From Blastopirellula sp. J2-11 (lineage in GTDB: Bacteria > Planctomycetota > Planctomycetia > Pirellulales > Pirellulaceae): a DNA stretch of 64,000 bases. Below are positions 8,824 through 15,421 of the stretch, piece after piece; position 1 is the stretch's first letter; every line of letters begins with the position of its first letter. The notes under the pieces are model-generated. The model did not search any database, was not told the DNA's origin, and saw nothing but the letters and a program-made list of their open reading frames with translations. Location of the stretch: the NCBI RefSeq assembly GCF_024584705.1, contig NZ_CP097384.1, forward strand, positions 5,890,001-5,954,000. The letters run 5' to 3'. The translations under genes and the position numbers were made by a program.

Positions 8824-10668
8824 TTAGCGGCCGAGAACCGGCTCGAGCCAGACGCTCCAGTCGCCGTCTTTGCCGTCGCCGCCATCTTCAACGACCAACT
8901 CCAGTCGACTGACATTTTCGACTTCCACCCAAAAATCACGCAGCTGGCCCGGCTTCGTCTTGGGACTGCGCCATAGTTCTTTGCCATCGGCGTTGATTAC
9001 AAAGACGACCTGGCCTCTGGTCCCTGCGACGCCGGCCGATCCCGAAAAATTCTTCCAGGCTCCGCCCAGATCATACGTGTGCTGGGCAGGCGCGTGCGCC
9101 CAAATCCCATGCCGGAAGATCCGGCCGCGTACTTCCAGCAGCGGCTGATCATGCGGCAAACGGTCATAGGCCGGGCGACCATATCCAAGATGGGCCGTTT
9201 CTGGTTGGCAGTCGGACAAGGGAACTTCGGTAATCTCTTTCGGCACGTAGAGCGGCGAAATATGGGGGCGTTTGGCTGCGGGCGATGCGGTTAATCGCTT
9301 GGCGACTTCCGCCACCAGCTTGTCATCAGAGGCCTGCAGCTTCTCGCTGATCGCTTGAATCTTTTCTTGGTCTTTGGATTTCAACGCGTCGGCTAGCGGC
9401 AGCAGTTGCAACTTCTGCTGAATCACTTGCAGTTGCGGCTCTCCTTTGGCGTTGGTCAGCAGATCAAATCCCCACCGCGAATTATCGCCGGAATAGGTTG
9501 TCGCCGCGCCATTCGCCTGGCACAGATCGATACGAATCCGCCCATGAAAATTGGGCGTCAGCGGTCGATAGCGAAGCGTGAATTCGCCTGACGCATTCGG
9601 TACGGCGACTGCGGAGAATGCGTCGTAGTTGCTGCCGCCATCAGGATCGAGATAGCCGAGCACGGCATAAACCGGAGGTGAGCCTGTAACGCGGCCGGTC
9701 AGTTCGACGGTGCGATCCACGGCTTCCACTTGGAGGATCTCGACGTTGGCGTCGCTTTTGGAACTGAGTCCTTTGTTCGATCCTGAGAACTGCGGGTGCG
9801 AAGCCAGCTTCAAGCCGTGCGCGAGCGTCAAAAATGTGCCGCGACCTTCACCGCGCAAATTGTCGCCATAGCTGCGATTGCCTGAACCCATTAGCGCCGT
9901 GCCAAACTGGGCTTTTTCATCAGGGCGTTCACGGCAATGAGGCAACCCCAGCGCGTGTCCCAGCTCATGACAGATTCCGCCGATGAAGATCGAGTTGTAT
10001 TTGCCAACCGAAATGTTTCCGTATTGCCCGTCACGCACTTTCCTCTCTTTGTTGTTGAGGAGTTGCAGATCGAGAATCGGCGAGTCGACTTGCCAGGCGG
10101 TACCGCCGGTCGGAGAACCTCCAGCGTAATAGGGACTGTTTTGCTTGATCTCCGCTTTGTCCGGATCCCAGTTCGACATATTGCAGAAGATGACGATCGT
10201 CTCTTCGTCGGGATTGACGCCTGCTTGGCGGAGTGTGGGGATACACTCTTGACGAATCTTGCGACCATCTGGAGTATCGTACTGCGCGTAGGGGCCTTCT
10301 CCCTTTACCACGTGAATGTTCAGTAGGCCATCTTCCTTGACGTCTAACCGAATCGACCGCGGGCCAAAGCCAAGTCGCGACATTTCCTGCGCGTAGAAGT
10401 TTTGAATATGAAGCAGGATCTCTGAGAGTCGCTCGCGATAGCGGGGCGCCGGCTCACGGTCGCTAGGAGTCCAATAGACCACATGCATTTTGCGCTTCCC
10501 GGGGACCGGATTCTCTTGCTCCCACTTCTCGATGATCTGCAGCGCCTGGGGAACCAGCAGATCGATCTCTTGCTGCGGAGTCGGCCCCGCAGCGGCGACC
10601 AGCGTAACGAAACTGAGCCAATAGAATGGCGTAAATGCAACGGCGATAGTTTGCAACATCGAGGACAT
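8824..10668 (-). CDS. Secreted metzincin-like zinc metalloprotease with C-terminal NPCBM domain
   Basis: 614 residues with an N-terminal signal segment (about 6-27). The zinc site is HELGHALGLPH, the long metzincin form HExxHxxGxxH, and a likely Met-turn ALMGSGN follows about 25 residues later. The C-terminal 130 residues match an NPCBM/NEW2 carbohydrate-binding module (LEVRGRIFRHGIWAHAPAQH, then GKELWRSP and LELVVEDGGDGKDGDWSVW). Such modules are usually on secreted glycan-active or glycoprotein-directed enzymes, so a glycosylated substrate is a reasonable inference. A middle region (about 310-400) holds beta domains. Met4 (10659) is an alternative start. Confidence 0.85.
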   Translation of the reverse strand: MSSMLQTIAVAFTPFYWLSFVTLVAAAGPTPQQEIDLLVPQALQIIEKWEQENPVPGKRKMHVVYWTPSDREPAPRYRERLSEILLHIQNFYAQEMSRLGFGPRSIRLDVKEDGLLNIHVVKGEGPYAQYDTPDGRKIRQECIPTLRQAGVNPDEETIVIFCNMSNWDPDKAEIKQNSPYYAGGSPTGGTAWQVDSPILDLQLLNNKERKVRDGQYGNISVGKYNSIFIGGICHELGHALGLPHCRERPDEKAQFGTALMGSGNRSYGDNLRGEGRGTFLTLAHGLKLASHPQFSGSNKGLSSKSDANVEILQVEAVDRTVELTGRVTGSPPVYAVLGYLDPDGGSNYDAFSAVAVPNASGEFTLRYRPLTPNFHGRIRIDLCQANGAATTYSGDNSRWGFDLLTNAKGEPQLQVIQQKLQLLPLADALKSKDQEKIQAISEKLQASDDKLVAEVAKRLTASPAAKRPHISPLYVPKEITEVPLSDCQPETAHLGYGRPAYDRLPHDQPLLEVRGRIFRHGIWAHAPAQHTYDLGGAWKNFSGSAGVAGTRGQVVFVINADGKELWRSPKTKPGQLRDFWVEVENVSRLELVVEDGGDGKDGDWSVWLEPVLGR

Positions 10669-10856
10669 ATGACATCGGCGGGGTGAAATGCGGGCATGCG
10701 TCGAGCAGATTGCGACTTGCTTCCATTTTATTCTACGTCACGACGTTTTTTCAGATAGTTGATTCTCCACGCGGTTTATCGCGACTTTTTCAACATTCCG
10801 CCGTCATTTGCGCCCCTTCCGCTTTCGTTTCTCCAGAAGGCTGGATGTCGTTGCGA

Positions 10857-11255
10857 TCAAAAATCAACCGCGACGTGCCACATCACTTGATGCTTGTCGG
10901 CGGTCTGCAGCAGCGATTGCCATTGCCGCAACTCTCGCCGGACCGAATCCTCCGCTGAAATCGTGGCTGGCTCCGCTTCGAGATGCGCCAACAGCGCGGC
11001 GATCGTGATCAAACCAGCGGCCGGAGCGAACCAGGTTTCTTGCGGCAATTCAAAACCTTCTCCCAACTCGAGTTCGTCTTCCAAAAAGAAGTCGGTTTCG
11101 TCGGCGCCTTGGCCAAAGAAATCCATCAGCGGCGTTACGCCCAGCGATTGGGCTAACTGCGCGAGCTCTTCTTCGCGCTCTGACAAGGCATGTCCATGCA
11201 CATACGACTGGACATCGGGGATTTCCCGCTGCAAGGCGATCATCAACGTCGGCAT
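10857..11255 (-). CDS. Conserved-looking hypothetical protein, 132 aa
   Basis: Open frame that can begin at ATG 11345 or 11255; I prefer 11255 (MPTLMIALQREIPDVQSYVH) because the extra 30 residues overlap the terminator of the slipin-like gene upstream. The protein is acidic in the middle (DETDFFLEDELELGEGFELP) and ends in a helical segment with two tryptophans (LRQWQSLLQTADKHQVMWHV). No domain recognised. It is the last gene of the leftward group that includes the SPFH gene and the tRNA-like array, but the terminator at 11347-11383 separates it from them. Confidence 0.6.
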   Translation of the reverse strand: MPTLMIALQREIPDVQSYVHGHALSEREEELAQLAQSLGVTPLMDFFGQGADETDFFLEDELELGEGFELPQETWFAPAAGLITIAALLAHLEAEPATISAEDSVRRELRQWQSLLQTADKHQVMWHVAVDF

Positions 11256-11346
11256 GGAGGTCTCTATATTTACGGAGAAGCGCGCGTCAAGAAAACTTCT
11301 CAAATCGTACCGGATGCCGACCGCGGCGCCAGATGGATTCCGCAAA

Positions 11347-11383
11347 CGAAAAAACGCCCTGGAAACTTTCGCTTCCAGGGCGT
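11347..11383 (-). terminator. Terminator downstream of the SPFH gene
   Basis: On the minus strand ACGCCCTGGAA, a loop of about 7, TTTCCAGGGCGT and then TTTTTT. It lies 6 bases past the stop codon of the SPFH gene. Confidence 0.9.
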
Positions 11384-11388
11384 CAGGT

Positions 11389-12492
11389 TTACAGCAAGTT
11401 GACGATTCGGTCGGCCAAGCCTTTTTCGCCTACGACGATGTTCAGCTTGCCTTCGGCGGCGATCTTTTCCAAGACCTCCAGCTCCCGGAGCCGCATCAAC
11501 GTGGGGTTATCGGCCAACAGTCGCGCCGTGTTCACCTGGCTGCGCATCGCGGCCGTCTCTTCCCGGCGGAAGATCAGGTTCGCTTCAGCCGCCTTCTTGG
11601 CCTGCGTCACCTTGTTCAACAGGTCTTTCATTTCACCAGGCAAGATCGCATCGCGAACGCCGACCGTGATCAGTTCCAGACCCAGCGTTTCGGCTCGGCG
11701 GCGCGTGATCGCGGCAATCTCGTCCGCGACGTTCTCTTTGTCGGTGAGAAACGCGTCCAGCTCGCGAGCGCCGATCACCGCTCGCGCGGCGAGCTGCGCT
11801 TCGCGATACAGCGCCTGTTGCACGTCGACCGTCGCCGCCGCCGCTTTCAGCGGATCGATCACCCGATAGGTCGCGACCAGGTTCAGCCGGAGCGTCACCT
11901 TGTCGGCCGTCATGATGTCTTGACCTGCTACGTCGAGCGTTTGCTCACGCAGATCAATCTCGACCACGCGAGCATCGACCGTTTCCTTCCAGAACGCGTA
12001 GACGCCTGGCTCTAGCGTCTCGACGTACTTGCCGTCGTAGAACAGCACGCCGCGGTGGAAACGCTGCACTTCGCAAACGTCCAGCGCCAGTCGAACCGCC
12101 GGTTCGCGGGCAATCCGCGACAAGTGATCGCGCTGCAGTCGTACTTCGCGAGCGTCGTAGCGCTCGATTTCCACCTTGCGCACGCCGTTCCAGTAGACAT
12201 ACAGACCTGGCTTCAGGATCCGGTCAAACCGACCATCGATCATGACGATCGCACGCTCGTGCTCGGTCAAGTCAACAACCACCGCTTGATCGGCCAGCTT
12301 GCCGCTGCGCGCGATCACGTCCAGCTTGTCGTGACGCAGCCAAGGATCACGTCGCGAGACGATATCGACTTGCTGCTTGCGCAGCCACGCGAACAGGTAA
12401 TGACGACCCGGCTCCAGCACGCCGGCGAACTCGCCGTCGACAAAGTACAGGCCTGCCTCGTAGGTTTGAATCTGAATTTGCTTGTAGATCAT
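11389..12492 (-). CDS. SPFH/Band 7 (slipin-like) protein, next to tRNA-like array
   Basis: 367 residues; ATG 12492 has a strong GGAGGTAAC site. Residues 1-170 contain three copies of a short motif of the form 'G.. .vdG.f..vLePG.y.f': YFVDGEFAGVLEPGRHYLFA, VMIDGRFDRILKPGLYVYWN, and LFYDGKYVETLEPGVYAFWK. The SPFH domain follows (about 180-310: VEIDLREQTLDVAGQDIMTA, TLRLNLVATYRV, GLELITVGVRDAILPGEMKD). A charged helical tail with a coiled-coil look ends the protein. No transmembrane segment is visible, unlike classical slipins. SPFH proteins oligomerise into membrane-associated rings or cages. From memory, slipin-type genes have been noted near RtcB-type RNA-repair genes in other bacteria; no ligase gene is visible in this window. 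Confidence 0.85.
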   Translation of the reverse strand: MIYKQIQIQTYEAGLYFVDGEFAGVLEPGRHYLFAWLRKQQVDIVSRRDPWLRHDKLDVIARSGKLADQAVVVDLTEHERAIVMIDGRFDRILKPGLYVYWNGVRKVEIERYDAREVRLQRDHLSRIAREPAVRLALDVCEVQRFHRGVLFYDGKYVETLEPGVYAFWKETVDARVVEIDLREQTLDVAGQDIMTADKVTLRLNLVATYRVIDPLKAAAATVDVQQALYREAQLAARAVIGARELDAFLTDKENVADEIAAITRRRAETLGLELITVGVRDAILPGEMKDLLNKVTQAKKAAEANLIFRREETAAMRSQVNTARLLADNPTLMRLRELEVLEKIAAEGKLNIVVGEKGLADRIVNLL

Positions 12493-12940
12493 CGTAGTTA
12501 CCTCCTGTTCCGCTCGTGTGGTTAACGCATCGGAAGCTGCTCCTCGTAAAAAAGTGGAAACGTAAGTCAGGTTATTCCATTCGGTCGTGATTCAATGCGT
12601 GAAAAAAAATGCCGTCCAGGACGCAAGCGATCGTCGCGATCCCATCCACTGTGACGGAGGATCGTTGGCGCGCATCGCGAACGATTGGAGACGTTCCGCT
12701 TGAGCGACCCTTTTGCCCCAGGGGCGAAAAAGACCGCTGCCGCAGGCGTCGAGCAATCGAACCTTCGATGCGGGCCGGTCATCCCGCAAAGCCGCAGGCG
12801 TATGGTGTCGCCGACACGATGCATGTCATTCCAGGCATCTCCGCCAAATGGCCGAAACCGCTTGGCGTAGTTGCGCAAGACCGACAAGTCGCCGCGTCGA
12901 CAACGGATCGTCTGAAAGTCACGTCCCTTTCGGCGGTTGT
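12493..12940. other. Gene-free stretch between SPFH gene and tRNA-like array
   Basis: About 450 bases. The SPFH ribosome site is at 12500-12505. An open frame on minus (12567-12887) has no support. On minus, 12805-12735 contains GAAGGTTCGATTGCTCG, a T-loop-like string, and just 5' of it a potential anticodon-type hairpin CCTGC/GCGGG; together these might be a further decayed tRNA-like element, but the arms cannot be closed convincingly. Confidence 0.4.
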
Positions 12941-13011
12941 GAACCGTGCAAGATTCGAACTTGCTACAGCCAGATCCATAATCTGGTGCTCTACCATTGA
13001 GCTAACGGAAA
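12941..13011 (-). tRNA. tRNA-like element, His-type body, anticodon ATG
   Basis: D-arm TAGCTCAATGGTAGAGC, anticodon stem CCAGA/TCTGG with loop TTATGGA, T-arm GCAAG-TTCGAAT-CTTGC. The body resembles bacterial tRNA-His, but the anticodon is AUG where GUG is expected. The acceptor ends TTTCCGT and ACGGTTC pair over only the inner 4 bp. No CCA. Confidence 0.75.
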
Positions 13012-13040
13012 TGGTGGATATGCCGAAGGCATACCTTGCG

Positions 13041-13111
13041 CATGTGGATGGGAATCGAACCCATGTCTCCGGCGCGGCGCCGGTGTCTGTACCTCACTAG
13101 ACGACCACCAA
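13041..13111 (-). tRNA. tRNA-like element, Glu-like body, anticodon unreadable
   Basis: D-arm GTCTAGTGAGGTACAGAC and T-arm ATGGG-TTCGATT-CCCAT are good and Glu/Gln-like. The anticodon arm is CCGGC-GCCGC-GCCGG: a 5-base loop without T33, so no normal anticodon. Acceptor TTGGTGG/CCACATG pairs for 4 bp only. Confidence 0.65.
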
Positions 13112-13112
13112 A

Positions 13113-13198
13113 GAAACGCGACCATCGAACCCGTTTTCGCGGAACACCGCGAATCGATCTATTGAAGAGACCGCGGCGCCGCCGGAGTATCGCGTTTC
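13113..13198 (-). tRNA. tRNA-like element with anticodon TCA and long variable arm (Sec-like)
   Basis: 86 bases. Extended acceptor GAAACGCG/CGCGTTTC (8 bp, plus one flanking pair on each side), D-region CTCCGGCGGCG, anticodon arm GGTCT-CTTCAAT-AGATC giving anticodon UCA, and a variable arm that is a perfect 7-bp hairpin TTCGCGG-TGTT-CCGCGAA. These are selenocysteine-tRNA features (UCA reads UGA; 8-bp acceptor; long variable arm). The T-arm keeps GGGTTCGATGG but its stem hardly pairs, so a working tRNA-Sec is doubtful. Confidence 0.6.
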
Positions 13199-13218
13199 TT
13201 CGTTGCTTGCATCAAAAA

Positions 13219-13290
13219 AACGTCGGCGGGAGTCGAACCCACAAGCGAGTTGCTTTGCAGGCAGCCGGCCGAACCATCAGCGGCGACGTT
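13219..13290 (-). tRNA. tRNA-like element, anticodon GCA (Cys)
   Basis: Acceptor AACGTCG/CGACGTT (7 bp, starting with A-T), D-arm GCTGATGGTTCGGC, anticodon arm GCTGC-CTGCAAA-GCAAC (one mismatch), T-arm GTGGG-TTCGACT-CCCGC. Positions 8-9 are CC instead of T plus purine. A T-run follows the acceptor; no CCA. Confidence 0.8.
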
Positions 13291-13302
13291 AGAAAAATAT
13301 AG

Positions 13303-13440
13303 ACACTAGCCCGCAGCGCGAGCTTTGAAGTTGCGCTATTTCGAATCAATCGAACACTAGCCCGCCAGCGCCAGCGAGGGAATACGGTTCGCCACTTCAA
13401 TCCGTGTTCGGATCGCCAACTCTATTCCCTCGCTGGCGCT
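13303..13440. repeat. REP-like hairpin element (family R1), copy b
   Basis: Perfect 18-bp inverted repeat AGCGCCAGCGAGGGAATA (13367-13384) / TATTCCCTCGCTGGCGCT (13423-13440) with loop CGGTTCGCCACTTCAATCCG. It is preceded by CTAGCCCGCAGCGCGAGC at 13306. Confidence 0.85.
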
Positions 13441-13707
13441 TTTTGAGGTTGCGCTATTTCCCTGGTTGGCCGCGATAGCTCCGCTATCCGCGGCGGCGCA
13501 GCCGTAAGAGGTATTGGTTCCCGGTAAGCAGTTCAGGGGCTTTTCGCCATTTCCAACGGTATAGCGACCACCGAAGTAAGTCCGACCGCGGCTCGATGCC
13601 TCCTACCGACTTCGTCGGCCCTGATAGCGTAGCTATCCGGGCCAACCCGAATCCGTTCGGCCAAATAGCGCAACCTCAAAACTCGCGTTTCGGTTACGAA
13701 GAATAAG
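13441..13707 (-). repeat. MITE-like inverted-repeat element, copy B
   Basis: The reverse complement of this segment matches 3163-3431 with scattered substitutions, including the outer arms TTTTGAGGTTGCGCTATTT and AAATAGCGCAACCTCAAAA and the inner hairpin around GATAGCTCCGCTATC. Both copies are followed by TACGAAGAATAAG. Confidence 0.8.
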
Positions 13708-13722
13708 TGTTGAAAATTGGAA

Positions 13723-13788
13723 GCGGACGCGGGAGTTGAACCCGCTGCGCGAAGCTTATGAGACTTCGCCGAGCGCCGGCTCGTCCGC
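13723..13788 (-). tRNA. tRNA-like element, anticodon CAT (Met), truncated D-arm
   Basis: Only 66 bases. Acceptor GCGGACG/CGTCCGC (perfect), anticodon arm GAAGT-CTCATAA-GCTTC, T-arm GCGGG-TTCAACT-CCCGC. The D region is reduced to CCGGCGCTCGGC, about a 3-bp stem with a 5-base loop and no GG pair, so the normal D-loop/T-loop elbow cannot form. Confidence 0.8.
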
Positions 13789-13816
13789 AATGATGAGCTT
13801 TGAAAAGAAGTGGAGT

Positions 13817-13896
13817 GCGCCGGGACGGAATTGAACCGCCACAGTATGAAACGAGTGGTTTACAGCCACCGGGGCTCGCCAATGCCCAGCCGACGC
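13817..13896 (-). tRNA. tRNA-like element, anticodon GTA (Tyr)
   Basis: Acceptor GCGTCGG/CCGGCGC (7 bp with one G-T), D-arm GGGCATTGGCGAGCCC, anticodon arm GGTGG-CTGTAAA-CCACT, 13-base variable region as in bacterial tRNA-Tyr, T-arm GGCGG-TTCAATT-CCGTC. This is the most regular member; position 8 is C and CCA is absent. Confidence 0.85.
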
Positions 13897-13909
13897 GAAT
13901 AAAAATAGT

Positions 13910-13986
13910 GGCACGAGTGAGAGTCGAACTCACAAAGTCACGAAGGTCTGAGCTTCGCCGCTTTGCCAAGGTTTGCGTACCGTGCC
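13910..13986 (-). tRNA. tRNA-like element, anticodon CAG (Leu), short variable loop
   Basis: Acceptor GGCACGG/TCGTGCC, D-arm CGC-AAACCTTGGCAAA-GCG, anticodon arm CGAAG-CTCAGAC-CTTCG, T-arm GTGAG-TTCGACT-CTCAC. The variable region is 7 bases (TGACTTT); bacterial leucine tRNAs normally have a long class II arm. Confidence 0.8.
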
Positions 13987-14037
13987 TAAGTAAGTAAGCG
14001 TGCACCGCTGCGGATTGTTACACGCATTTTTTCGAGC

Positions 14038-14110
14038 GCCCCTGACAGGATTTGAACCTGCGTCTCCGCCGTGACAAAGCGGCGAGCATTCCAGACTGCT
14101 CCGCAAGGGC
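14038..14110 (-). tRNA. tRNA-like element, anticodon GTC (Asp)
   Basis: Acceptor GCCCTTG/CAGGGGC (one G-T), D-arm GAGC-AGTCTGGAAT-GCTC, anticodon arm CCGCT-TTGTCAC-GGCGG (closing T-G), T-arm GCAGG-TTCAAAT-CCTGT. Positions 8-9 are CG. No CCA. Confidence 0.8.
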
Positions 14111-14129
14111 TTGTTCGATCGTACAGGCT

Positions 14130-14202
14130 GCGAGAGCCGCCAGTCGAACCAGCAGCGACCTGATTCAAAGTCAGGCGTCACTACCAACAGCGAACCTCTC
14201 AC
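14130..14202 (-). tRNA. tRNA-like element, anticodon TTG (Gln), broken T-stem
   Basis: Acceptor GTGAGAG/CTCTCGC, D-arm TCGC-TGTTGGTA-GTGA, anticodon arm CCTGA-CTTTGAA-TCAGG. The T-loop TTCGACT is present, but its standard stem (GCTGG against GGCGG) does not pair; a shifted stem GCTGC/GCGGC with an 11-base loop is possible. Confidence 0.75.
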
Positions 14203-14209
14203 AACAAAA

Positions 14210-14305
14210 ATCACGTACCGAATTTTCAAAGATCAAATCTGTCGCTGGCAGATTATCGAACTCCGCGGCGCGCTCCCCCGCCAGCTTTAGAATGGGAGCG
14301 CGCCG
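14210..14305 (-). ncRNA. Strong GC hairpin after the embedded ORF, possible tRNA-like remnant
   Basis: Just past the stop codon of the 97-codon gene the minus strand can form a 13-bp stem GCGGCGCGCTCCC/GGGAGCGCGCCGC around ATTCTAAAGC. It is followed by GCGGA-GTTCGATAA-TCTGC, which looks like a T-arm. No acceptor stem can be closed and there is no T-run, so it is neither a clear terminator nor a clear tRNA-like element. Confidence 0.4.
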
Positions 14306-14314
14306 CCGCGTCAG

Positions 14315-14608
14315 TTACTCAATCACATCGAAGTAGTCCTTCGACACTTCGAGCGCCAAACGACCACCTCCCAGTCGAAGTTCGCAAGCGGCGTTGTCGA
14401 TCCGGCTTTGCCGCAGATCGACGTCCAACTCTTCAACGCCGCAAAACTGTAAACGTTGCGGCTCGTCCGCTTCCTGCGGTCCCAGCACCACGGCGTAACG
14501 CTGGTCAGCGCCGCCTCGGAAGCGGATGCGAGCCGAACGGATCGCCGGCTGTCCGGGGATTTCAAAGCAGGCGGCGATCGCTTGCTGAAATAAACGTTGC
14601 TTGCTCAT
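14315..14608 (-). CDS. Hypothetical 97-aa protein embedded in the tRNA-like array
   Basis: ATG 14608 has GGAGAAAGAAG directly upstream and starts only 17 bases after the Phe tRNA-like element. The sequence (MSKQRLFQQAIAACFEIPGQ, then RFRGGADQRYAVVLGPQEAD, CGVEELDVDL, ending VSKDYFDVIE) suggests a small, beta-rich, acidic cytoplasmic protein; no family recognised. It lies between the Phe and Gln elements on the same strand, so it must be on the same primary transcript if the array is transcribed as one unit. That makes a role in processing, binding or sensing of these RNAs a reasonable guess, not a finding. Confidence 0.75.
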   Translation of the reverse strand: MSKQRLFQQAIAACFEIPGQPAIRSARIRFRGGADQRYAVVLGPQEADEPQRLQFCGVEELDVDLRQSRIDNAACELRLGGGRLALEVSKDYFDVIE

Positions 14609-14625
14609 CTTCTTTCTCCGGTAAG

Positions 14626-14698
14626 TGGACGGGGGAGCGCTCGAATCTCCGTCTCCTGGTCTTCAGCCAGGCGCTATTCCATCTCAGCTATCCGTCCA
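14626..14698 (-). tRNA. tRNA-like element, anticodon GAA (Phe), abnormal T-loop
   Basis: Acceptor TGGACGG/CCGTCCA is a perfect 7 bp, D-loop GAGATGGAAT, anticodon arm CCTGG-CTGAAGA-CCAGG. The T-arm is GGAG-ATTCGAGCG-CTCC: a 4-bp stem with a 9-base loop instead of 5 bp and 7 bases. First element of the array. Confidence 0.8.
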
Positions 14699-14716
14699 GC
14701 GGTTCGGTACGTGCAC

Positions 14717-14750
14717 AAAAAAAGCCCGGCGTCTGTGGCGACCCGGGCTT
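14717..14750 (-). terminator. Terminator-like hairpin immediately upstream of the tRNA-like array
   Basis: On minus: AAGCCCGG, a 12-13-base loop, CCGGGCTT followed by TTTTT. It ends 19 bases before the first tRNA-like element and follows a 28-codon ORF by 28 bases. It may end an upstream transcript or act as an attenuator for the array. Confidence 0.8.
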
Positions 14751-15008: not shown

Positions 15009-15421
15009 TCTTCGTAGCCCGCTTGCGCAATTTGAATGGAACACGGCCAGACCACGGATCAAGAACGGAAAAGCAGGGTCGGAAGCAAGCGGAAAACGTC
15101 TCACTAGAACGCTGCGACAGCAAGGGAAAGCGGCTCGCCACTTCAATCCGTGTTGGCGTCGCCATCCGCATTCCCTCGCTGGCGCAACGGGCTAGTGTTC
15201 TGTCACGCGACAATTTTCAGGAGCCATGATTTTATTAGCCGTAGTGCGTTAGCACCGGTTTCTGATGGGAACTCATTTGCGAAAGACAATTGGTAACAGA
15301 AACCGCGGCTAACGCCGTGCGGCTGATTTCGTGGAAGCCGAAAATAGCGATTTGACAGAACACTAGCGTTCAATCGGTTCGAGAAATCGCAGCTTCAAAA
15401 TGCGCAAGCGGGCTACGAAGA
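15009..15421. repeat. Nested inverted-repeat element (R1 copy c with an inserted small TIR element)
   Basis: Outer perfect 21-bp inverted repeat: 15009-15029 (CTTCGTAGCCCGCTTGCGCA core) and 15401-15421. Inside, 15117-15190 carries the R1 loop sequence GCGGCTCGCCACTTCAATCC and the arm ATTCCCTCGCTGGCGC. Confidence 0.85.
15192..15366. mobile_element. 175-bp MITE-like element with perfect 14-bp terminal inverted repeats
   Basis: CTAGTGTTCTGTCA (15192-15205) and TGACAGAACACTAG (15353-15366) are exact reverse complements. Inside is a second imperfect pair (GGTTTCTGATGG near 15260 and GTAACAGAAACCGCGGC near 15294). There is no transposase frame. It sits within the larger R1 copy c. Confidence 0.65.

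What the first reader, a model, noticed from the sequence alone, without database searches (positions are those of the whole stretch)
12941..14698. Compact array of ten aberrant tRNA-like RNAs leading into an SPFH gene
Ten minus-strand elements each have tRNA cloverleaf parts but differ from working tRNAs: no CCA, T8 missing in most, acceptor stems half-paired in two, and damaged D- or T-arms in others. Anticodons are all different (GAA, TTG, GTC, CAG, GTA, CAT, GCA, TCA, one unreadable, ATG). Elbow features (D-loop GG, T-loop TTCRA) are retained, which argues against free decay. Codirectional with the slipin-like gene and an embedded 97-codon gene. A decoy, sensor or bait for tRNA-targeting nucleases or RNA repair is a plausible inference.
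Basis: partly seen in the sequence, partly recalled or inferred. Interest (0 to 1): 0.95.

Follow-up and report, generated by a model that had tools for sequence, protein, structure and literature searches.

The report
tRNA-like array tied to RNA repair
A planctomycete bacterium carries a row of odd but conserved tRNA-like genes that leads, through a structured RNA with no match in the RNA family library, into an SPFH scaffold-protein gene, and related loci sit beside RNA-repair genes, so what looks like tRNA debris is probably part of a response to RNA damage.

Summary
The array is real: ten minus-strand tRNA-like elements at 12939-14702, anticodons as listed. "No CCA" is not aberrant (0 of 46 other tRNAs of the genome encode it); loss of U8 is (6 of 10 against 3 of 46, those three probably all serine). 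Most elements are under selection: 86% identity to G001/G003 against about 60% at four-fold sites of slipin. In 80 slipin loci ARAGORN finds 504 tRNAs upstream on the slipin strand, none on the other; arrays hold up to 36, in conserved order. The last element heads a covarying ~400-nt RNA without an Rfam match, found in all 75 loci with 300 nt or more upstream; 82 of 82 genomes where its model hits hold that slipin. Its anticodon is free, its elbow fixed. Sister arrays precede Ro60/TROVE genes, in two genus mates followed by rtcB; distant slipins adjoin rtcB or rtcR behind tRNA-like RNAs. Best reading: an RNA-damage-response locus giving surrogate tRNAs, a tRNA-headed RNA and an SPFH scaffold. 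Linkage, conservation and RNA structure are shown; induction and mechanism are inferred. Nearest known: the Anabaena trn array with its rtcB-slipin regulon, and rtc operons with YrlA. A new variant of a known kind, with one apparently new RNA family.

The parts
14715..14750 (-). terminator-like (attenuator-like) hairpin with T-run just 5' of the array
   Evidence: MFE -19.8 kcal/mol, z -3.5; similar hairpins (GCCCGGTGTCac..GACACCGGGC-TTTTTT) stand 5' of Phe in other arrays: strict test 13 of 18 leaders, 58 of 720 control windows; the window, its three genus mates and L062 fail the strict test because of bulges or mismatches
14626..14697 (-). tRNA-like element 1, Phe GAA
   Evidence: ARAGORN, Rfam tRNA 50.5 bits; 89-99% identity to genus mates
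14315..14608 (-). 97-codon ORF inside the array
   Evidence: homologues in genus mates only among loci held (80-88% aa); no Pfam, NCBIfam, PADLOC or PHROGs match
14129..14202 (-). tRNA-like element 2, Gln TTG (G8; damaged T stem here)
14036..14110 (-). tRNA-like element 3, Asp GTC (C8)
13908..13986 (-). tRNA-like element 4, Leu CAG
   Evidence: 97-99% identity to G001 and G003, absent from G002
13815..13896 (-). tRNA-like element 5, Tyr GTA (C8)
   Evidence: absent from G002
13720..13790 (-). tRNA-like element 6, anticodon CAT (G8)
13218..13291 (-). tRNA-like element 7, Cys GCA (C8)
13109..13201 (-). tRNA-like element 8, TCA (G8)
13044..13108 (-). tRNA-like element 9, no clear anticodon, short acceptor; ARAGORN reads GCG (G002), TGA (G001) or nothing (G003) at this place in genus mates
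12939..13011 (-). terminal tRNA-like element: canonical D and T arms, 4-bp acceptor, free anticodon (ATG here); 5' domain of the new RNA
12603..12936 (-). structured core of the new RNA (whole RNA about 12603-13012), ends in a T-rich tract
   Evidence: profile hit; covariation, 77 of 96 pairs with double changes; covariance model R1 hit 78.9 bits (the window row was one of 41 used to build R1)
11389..12492 (-). slipin-type SPFH protein, predicted as three tandem beta units leading into an SPFH domain and helices

Best explanation
The window holds the planctomycete form of an RNA-damage-response locus. A transcript starting near the conserved leader is held back by a terminator-like hairpin; on tRNA damage or translation stress read-through makes (a) a set of conserved surrogate tRNAs, reduced to ten here and near-complete (up to 33 anticodons) in relatives, which replace or shield cleaved tRNAs, (b) a ~400-nt RNA whose 5' domain copies the tRNA elbow with a free anticodon loop and a clipped acceptor, so that it binds a partner reading tRNA shape and not identity, and (c) the slipin, which probably assembles into a ring or cage that holds that RNA and repair enzymes. 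In relatives Ro60/TROVE, and in two genus mates RtcB behind it, follow sister arrays. Shown: array, conservation, linkage, RNA structure, leader hairpin, neighbours in relatives. Inferred: promoter, induction, attenuation, assembly, what the RNA binds.
For: Selection: elements present in both are 86% identical to G001 and G003 and 93% to G002, against 60, 61 and 79% at 4-fold sites of slipin and 54, 62 and 71% in spacers. Linkage: 504 ARAGORN tRNAs upstream on the slipin strand, 0 upstream on the other, 3+5 downstream, in the 80 best of 448 slipin loci found. Non-serine aberrations recur by isoacceptor: Arg-GCG lacks U8 in 26 of 26, Arg-TCG in 18 of 19, Cys-GCA in 19 of 21, while Leu-CAA, Gly-GCC and Val-TAC keep it in all (457 elements); with serine left out 134 of 417 lack U8 against 0 of 43 other tRNAs of the window genome. 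Order: mean tau 0.95 among slipin arrays (lowest 0.69), 0.88 against TROVE arrays (lowest 0.07). New RNA: all 75 loci with 300 nt or more upstream, 2 of 5 shorter ones; 55 of the 80 loci helped to build the profile, and 22 of the other 25 are hit; covariation 0.392 against 0.193 shuffled, 85.3% of cells paired against 35.5-42.7% slid; 72 of 72 model-positive genomes of a 297-genome class sample carry the slipin, 72 of 73 places lie upstream on its strand, median gap 109 nt; 10 of 10 further model-positive genomes from other classes likewise. Terminal element: 27 anticodons in 65 seven-nt loops, A34 in 25, U33 in only 45. Repair link: rtcB follows slipin in Burkholderia, Photobacterium and Subdoligranulum, with tRNA-like hairpins upstream; rtcR next to slipin in Citrobacter; TROVE-rtcB behind a 16-tRNA array in G003 and behind one element in G001. 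Precedent: Anabaena trn array, rtcB and a slipin gene share the repressor TrcR and are released by translation stress (PMC10272220, abstract and passages).
Against: No expression data. In the window genome rtcB lies 2.69 Mb away, and an opposite-strand ORF stands between it and its three tRNA-like elements. No TROVE and no RtcR in this genome. A ten-tRNA set cannot replace a full one, and elements 7-9 are less conserved (64-81% to G001/G003). The RNA core itself is only 70% identical to G001/G003, not far above 4-fold sites. Within the 80 slipin loci rtcB lies in the fetched flank of 1, TROVE of 2. Serine tRNAs with A8 are normal here, so that part of the oddity is no signal. In three of ten loci of other classes 1-8 same-strand tRNAs lie downstream of slipin as well, so the array-RNA-slipin order is not absolute. 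10 of 21 TROVE loci show no same-strand tRNA upstream (three of them have next to no upstream DNA). The leader hairpin might just end the upstream gene. 16 of 88 slipin genomes gave no RNA hit under strict filters.
Confidence: 0.6

Rival explanations
1. Spare tRNA set: the array is an inducible L-array of working tRNAs that keep translation going when housekeeping tRNAs are damaged; slipin and the RNA are co-regulated helpers.
For: Up to 33 anticodons in one array, mean acceptor pairing 6.9 of 7, D-loop GG 0.96, T-loop TTC 0.95 over 457 elements; Anabaena trn operon silent and stress-induced (PMC10272220 passages).
Against: Conserved loss of U8 and A14 in several non-serine isoacceptors; only ten elements here, several damaged; the terminal element cannot be an ordinary decoding tRNA.
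Confidence: 0.4
2. Decoys: the tRNA-likes soak up anticodon nucleases or other tRNA-targeting enzymes, sparing real tRNAs.
For: Shape kept while identity or core features drift; Hughes et al. [quoted passage not shown] anticodon loop shrunk to 3-4 nt in Burkholderia relatives leaves only the elbow.
Against: Anticodons of the array body are conserved with their order, more than a bait needs; a loop of 3-4 nt is no anticodon bait.
Confidence: 0.3
3. tRNA punctuation: the terminal element only marks an RNase P or RNase Z cut that frees the slipin mRNA; the rest is a passenger array.
For: Nearly fixed place 5' of the RNA core and slipin.
Against: The element heads a covarying RNA and stays with it where the RNA lies 0.7-2.5 kb from slipin; kept where ARAGORN sees no other element upstream (L099, L119, L120, L126).
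Confidence: 0.12
4. Degenerate tRNA cluster gained by horizontal transfer and dispensable (view of PMC4807772 for planctomycetes).
For: Clusters vary in size between relatives; elements 7-9 are less conserved.
Against: Purifying selection on most elements, conserved order, linkage to slipin and the RNA.
Confidence: 0.05

Closest known systems
Anabaena sp. PCC 7120 trn operon / L-array with the TrcR regulon (PMC10272220, abstract and passages; PMC9938897, one passage)
   Same: Long array of supernumerary tRNA genes; a slipin gene (alr0740) and rtcB belong to the same stress-released regulon.
   Different: There the array is on a megaplasmid and rtcB on the chromosome; no tRNA-headed structured RNA is mentioned in the passages read; here array, RNA and slipin are one locus. 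TrcR was not looked for.
rtc RNA-repair operon with Rsr and YrlA (Salmonella rsr-yrlBA-rtcBA, PMC7790460, passages)
   Same: tRNA-like RNA in a repair locus; slipin next to rtcR or rtcB in relatives; an SPFH gene inside the rtc locus of P. aeruginosa (PMC13086221, one passage).
   Different: No RtcR in the genome and no adjacent rtcB; up to dozens of tRNA-likes; the RNA does not match Rfam.
Degenerate tRNA gene clusters of Planctomycetes (PMC4807772, passages)
   Same: Probably the same clusters; the tRNA-Ile UAU named there also sits in these arrays.
   Different: That paper reads them as often acquired by HGT and possibly dispensable; here most elements are under selection and tied to slipin, TROVE and rtcB.
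Major vault protein and other SPFH cages (stomatin, HflK/C, flotillin)
   Same: Predicted slipin fold: tandem beta units before an SPFH domain; Foldseek stomatin E 1.3e-16, vault protein E 8.9e-11 over 447 columns.
   Different: Only prediction, with modest TM-scores (0.37-0.41 to the query); no sequence-level match to vault protein; 367 aa against about 700-800.

Membership tests
L-array / inducible tRNA operon | many different tRNA genes in one codirectional cluster besides a housekeeping set | tested here: met
   Ten here; up to 36 in relatives; 48 of 53 tRNA hits of the own genome lie outside this array, 2 of them in the rtcB locus
L-array / inducible tRNA operon | silent normally, induced by translation stress | not testable with these tools
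   no expression data; a leader hairpin is compatible
L-array / inducible tRNA operon | TrcR-type repressor site | not tested
   not searched
rtc RNA-repair operon | rtcB in the operon | tested here: not met
   single rtcB of the genome 2.69 Mb away; met for slipin homologues in Burkholderia, Photobacterium, Subdoligranulum
rtc RNA-repair operon | RtcR regulator | tested here: not met
   0 in own genome, 3 of 40 genomes
Ro60 / Y RNA (YrlA) system | TROVE protein | tested here: not met
   none in own genome; 18 of 60 genomes have a match; 11 of 21 TROVE loci have same-strand tRNAs upstream
Ro60 / Y RNA (YrlA) system | match of the RNA to a known Y RNA family | tested here: not met
   no such Rfam match at E up to 10 in L066 or up to 5 in the window stretch
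decaying tRNA pseudogene cluster | neutral divergence | tested here: not met
   86% against 60-61% at 4-fold sites over all elements; elements 7-9 are weaker
SPFH / slipin | Band_7 domain and stomatin fold | tested here: met
vault (MVP) | MVP sequence | tested here: not met
   17 PDB sequences matched at E up to 0.01, none named vault protein; fold likeness only
T-box riboswitch | Rfam T-box match | tested here: not met
   only a short GTGGATACCGC string resembles the recalled T-box core; no T-box hit

The most novel reading that the evidence does not exclude
The slipin and its constant partner, the tRNA-headed RNA, form a bacterial vault-like ribonucleoprotein that senses or handles tRNA by its elbow: the RNA's tRNA copy, free of anticodon and acceptor identity, gates loading of damaged tRNAs into an SPFH cage where RtcB and Ro60 act, and the array supplies clean surrogates meanwhile.
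Probability: 0.2. Interest if true: 0.93.

Novelty: new variant of a known kind. Interest (0 to 1): 0.82.

Why it matters
It turns clusters that have been read as tRNA debris into a testable RNA-repair locus, gives the slipin of rtc-type loci a large structured RNA of its own (no Rfam match found; in the genome samples searched, 82 of 82 genomes with the RNA have that slipin), and shows a natural tRNA mimic whose anticodon is free while its elbow is fixed. If confirmed it would say what SPFH proteins do in RNA repair, a question raised by rtc loci, and supply a system in which survival of tRNA cleavage can be tested genetically.

Tried and rejected
The 97-codon ORF and the 162-aa ORF downstream of slipin: no family matches, and homologues only in genus mates among the loci held, so not core parts. 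The 106-aa ORF 12567-12887: frame broken between relatives; it lies in the RNA. T-box idea: no Rfam support. The RNA as Ro60's Y RNA: the profile gave only one chance-like hit (E 0.69, L203) in the TROVE loci. Phage origin: slipin hits in 3 phage records are weak, partial SPFH matches. PADLOC: nothing. The terminator scan tool did not report the leader hairpin, which has a bulge. My first anticodon count demanded U33 and was biased; redone without that demand. My first housekeeping control took the 40 best-scoring of 46 tRNA hits, and gave U8 in 40 of 40; the six lowest, fetched later, showed three with A8, so conserved A8 in array Ser elements is no aberration and I dropped it as evidence. 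In one search printed rtcB identities are the best of three queries; direct comparison gives 87% (G001) and 89% (G003).

Dropped before counts: L090 (same sequence as L082 in the stretch read), L093 and L132 (doubtful terminal element); elements 360-620 nt before slipin (taken as terminal) left out of the 457; only the 80 best of 448 slipin loci were held; A3 used 36 and A2 41 of about 80 RNA rows, chosen by hand for length and spread, which may favour clean rows, and the structure counted was derived from A3 itself. The loose-gap cases include partial slipin hits (G082, G086, G118), whose gaps are overstated.
Full report
The observation. The window is 5890001-5954000 of a 6.43-Mb single-contig genome; the closest named relative met here is Blastopirellula marina DSM 3645 (slipin 97% identical, L056). 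Ten minus-strand tRNA-like elements lie at 12939-14702. ARAGORN reports six, Rfam at gathering three, the whole-genome model search five, and a relaxed scan shows Gln-TTG, Cys-GCA and the CAT element weakly. Alignment to G001, G002 and G003 shows each element in at least two of the three; G002 lacks Leu and Tyr. As control I took the 46 tRNA hits of the same genome outside this array and the rtcB locus: none encodes CCA; 43 have U8; the other three, serine by my reading of the anticodon, have A8. So lack of CCA is ordinary, while lack of U8 in 6 of 10 elements, none of them a clear serine element, is not (p 4e-4). Acceptors are 7 of 7 in six elements, 6 of 7 in two and 4-5 in two.

Mostly not decay. 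Elements present in both are 86% identical between the window and G003 or G001 (93% to G002), against 61, 60 and 79% at four-fold sites of the slipin gene and 62, 54 and 71% in spacers, which also carry hundreds of gapped columns. Elements 7, 8 and 9 fall to 64-81% against G003 and G001 and may be relaxed; the core of the RNA described below is 70% there. Over 457 array elements of other slipin loci, faults recur by isoacceptor: Arg-GCG lacks U8 in 26 of 26, Arg-TCG in 18 of 19, Cys-GCA in 19 of 21, while Leu-CAA, Gly-GCC and Val-TAC keep U8 throughout; mean acceptor pairing 6.9, D-loop GG 0.96, TTC 0.95. Ser elements have A8 or C8, of which A8 is normal for serine in the window genome. With serine left out, 134 of 417 array elements lack U8 against 0 of 43. 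Random decay would not repeat itself by isoacceptor.

Linkage to the SPFH gene. Of 60 genomes (own included), 20 hold a full-length slipin of 55-100% identity and one more holds it in pieces. A scan of GTDB contigs gave 448 relatives, of which the best 80 were kept. In these, ARAGORN finds 504 tRNAs upstream on the slipin strand, none upstream on the other strand, and 3 plus 5 downstream, in 431 and 466 kb; of 66 loci with at least 1.5 kb upstream, 53 have one or more, 29 three or more, 17 ten or more. The longest holds 36; one array has up to 33 different anticodons and all together 46, in a conserved order (mean Kendall tau 0.95, lowest 0.69, over 64 pairs of 12 slipin arrays). The window's array is a reduced one.

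A new RNA. The last element sits about 380-600 nt before slipin in most loci. Its D arm, anticodon stem and T arm are nearly fixed within the class, its acceptor is about 4 bp, and its anticodon varies: of 71 parsed, 65 have seven-nt loops with 27 anticodons, A34 in 25, U33 in 45. On 36 sequences and 96 pairs, 85.3% of cells pair (35.5-42.7% when slid), 77 pairs have changes on both sides, covariation 0.392 against 0.193 shuffled; the structure was derived from the same alignment, which favours it over the slid versions. A profile built from 58 rows (55 of them from these loci) finds it in 77 of 80 slipin loci, 22 of 25 outside the profile set; all 75 loci with 300 nt or more upstream are hit, and the three without have 53, 166 and 295 nt. 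It stays when it lies 0.7-2.5 kb away, so it is more than a leader. A covariance model of the core (R1) finds it in 72 of 297 class genomes, some of them sources of the model; all 72 are among the 88 with the slipin, and no hit lies elsewhere: 72 of 73 places are upstream on the same strand and contig, median gap 109 nt, the 73rd on another contig. In a phylum sample of 343 genomes, 14 of the 24 positives were already counted; the ten others, from other classes and not used for the model, all have the slipin just downstream. Nine of these ten show a clear terminal-element look-alike 5' of the core, with another anticodon-stem sequence; three have 23-31 same-strand tRNAs, most upstream of slipin but 1-8 downstream. 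Sixteen slipin genomes of the class sample gave no RNA hit. No Rfam family matches.

The leader. Aligned leaders of 18 arrays that begin with Phe-GAA give TTGCGCTTGTGACGCTgGGCC and then a hairpin GCCCGGTGTCac..GACACCGGGC followed by a T-run. A strict test finds such a hairpin in 13 of 18 and in 58 of 720 control windows; the exact GTGACGCT-type string is in 8 of 18. The window, its three genus mates and L062 fail the strict test; the window's hairpin, with a bulge, folds at -19.8 kcal/mol, z -3.5. It also precedes a TROVE array (L192) and arrays with a divergent SPFH (L183, L182). It may be an attenuator or just the end of the upstream gene; no sigma-70-type promoter was found by the simple scan.

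The RNA-repair connection. Full-length homologues of this slipin (32-39% identity) lie just 5' of rtcB in three Burkholderia records, Photobacterium and Subdoligranulum, and next to rtcR and a nucleotidyltransferase gene in Citrobacter. Upstream of slipin ARAGORN calls one aberrant tRNA in each of three Burkholderia records and two in Photobacterium; in Burkholderia the anticodon loop is reduced to GAAA or AAA, and T-arm-like hairpins are also seen by eye in Citrobacter, E. coli and Subdoligranulum. TGGCAC boxes there look like sigma-54 promoters (motif recalled). Within the 60 genomes a sister set of arrays precedes a TROVE (Ro60) gene: 11 of 21 TROVE loci examined have same-strand tRNAs upstream, 7 have six or more; in G003 the order is array, TROVE, rtcB, and G001 has one element, TROVE, rtcB. 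The window genome has no TROVE match, keeps an rtcB 87-89% identical to those of G001 and G003, and three tRNA-likes near it with an opposite-strand ORF between. RtcR is absent. Passages of PMC10272220 show that in Anabaena a 26-gene tRNA operon, rtcB and the slipin gene alr0740 are repressed by TrcR and released by translation stress; PMC13086221 notes an SPFH gene inside the rtc locus of P. aeruginosa; [quoted passage not shown] PMC4807772 calls planctomycete clusters degenerate and possibly dispensable (passages only in each). Two papers central here (doi gkab661 on the Anabaena array, gkw722 on RNA-repair systems) are not held and are known to me only by recall; gkw722 may describe slipin or tRNA-like links, so priority for those links is not claimed.

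The protein. AlphaFold2 gives mean pLDDT 84.6, pTM 0.62: three tandem five-strand units, the third merging into the SPFH domain, then long helices. Foldseek's best are stomatins (E 1.3e-16); major vault protein chains match over 396-463 columns (best E 8.9e-11) with modest TM-scores. By sequence only stomatins, HflK, QmcA, flotillin and a hypothetical membrane protein match. A cage or ring is therefore likely, a vault likeness suggestive.

Mechanism. Shown: conserved elements, order, leader hairpin, RNA structure, linkage. Inferred: that damage or translation stress releases the leader, that the tRNA-likes replace or shield cleaved tRNAs, that the terminal element is read by shape, and that slipin holds the RNA. 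The free anticodon of the terminal element speaks against a bait for one nuclease; near-complete sets with good acceptors speak for spare tRNAs in relatives; the reduced set here speaks against full replacement. Novelty searches were in open-licence full texts, where no listed paper's title or abstract start joined tRNA-like arrays, slipin and a structured RNA; most subscription papers are not covered.

Noticed in passing
window 13300-13470 and 15100-15220: Repeated stretches (ctagcccgccagcgccagcgagggaat and its inverse, seen by eye) fill the array spacer where genus mates hold an Arg-GCG element; looks like a small mobile or REP-type repeat that erased an element.
   Followed up: no
L191, L192, L195, L196, L166, L167 upstream of TROVE: The stretch between array and TROVE holds T-arm hairpins and blocks of roughly 70-90% identity between genera, possibly planctomycete Y RNAs.
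   Followed up: partly
L182, L183, L184 (G041, G016, G045): A divergent SPFH gene (28-30% identity) sits among tRNA-like genes with elements on both sides: a second SPFH lineage in the same niche.
   Followed up: partly
L032 8108-8533: Three tRNA-like elements (Gly GCC, Asn GTT, Leu TAG) near the own genome's rtcB (10238-11629), apparently remains of a sister array.
   Followed up: partly
L209 (Photobacterium sp. GJ3 plasmid) 2677-2818: Two tandem tRNA-like RNAs between a TGGCAC box and slipin-rtcB.
   Followed up: partly
L040, L041, L183 and others: Arrays carry Ile-TAT, Arg-GCG and Leu-GAG, unusual (by recall) for bacterial decoding sets.
   Followed up: no
L262, L264, L266 (other classes): Same-strand tRNA-like genes lie on both sides of slipin, unlike in the window's class.
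   Followed up: no
G000 tRNA hits 4365244, 1593842, 2550035: Three tRNAs, serine by their anticodons, have A8 in place of U8.
   Followed up: no
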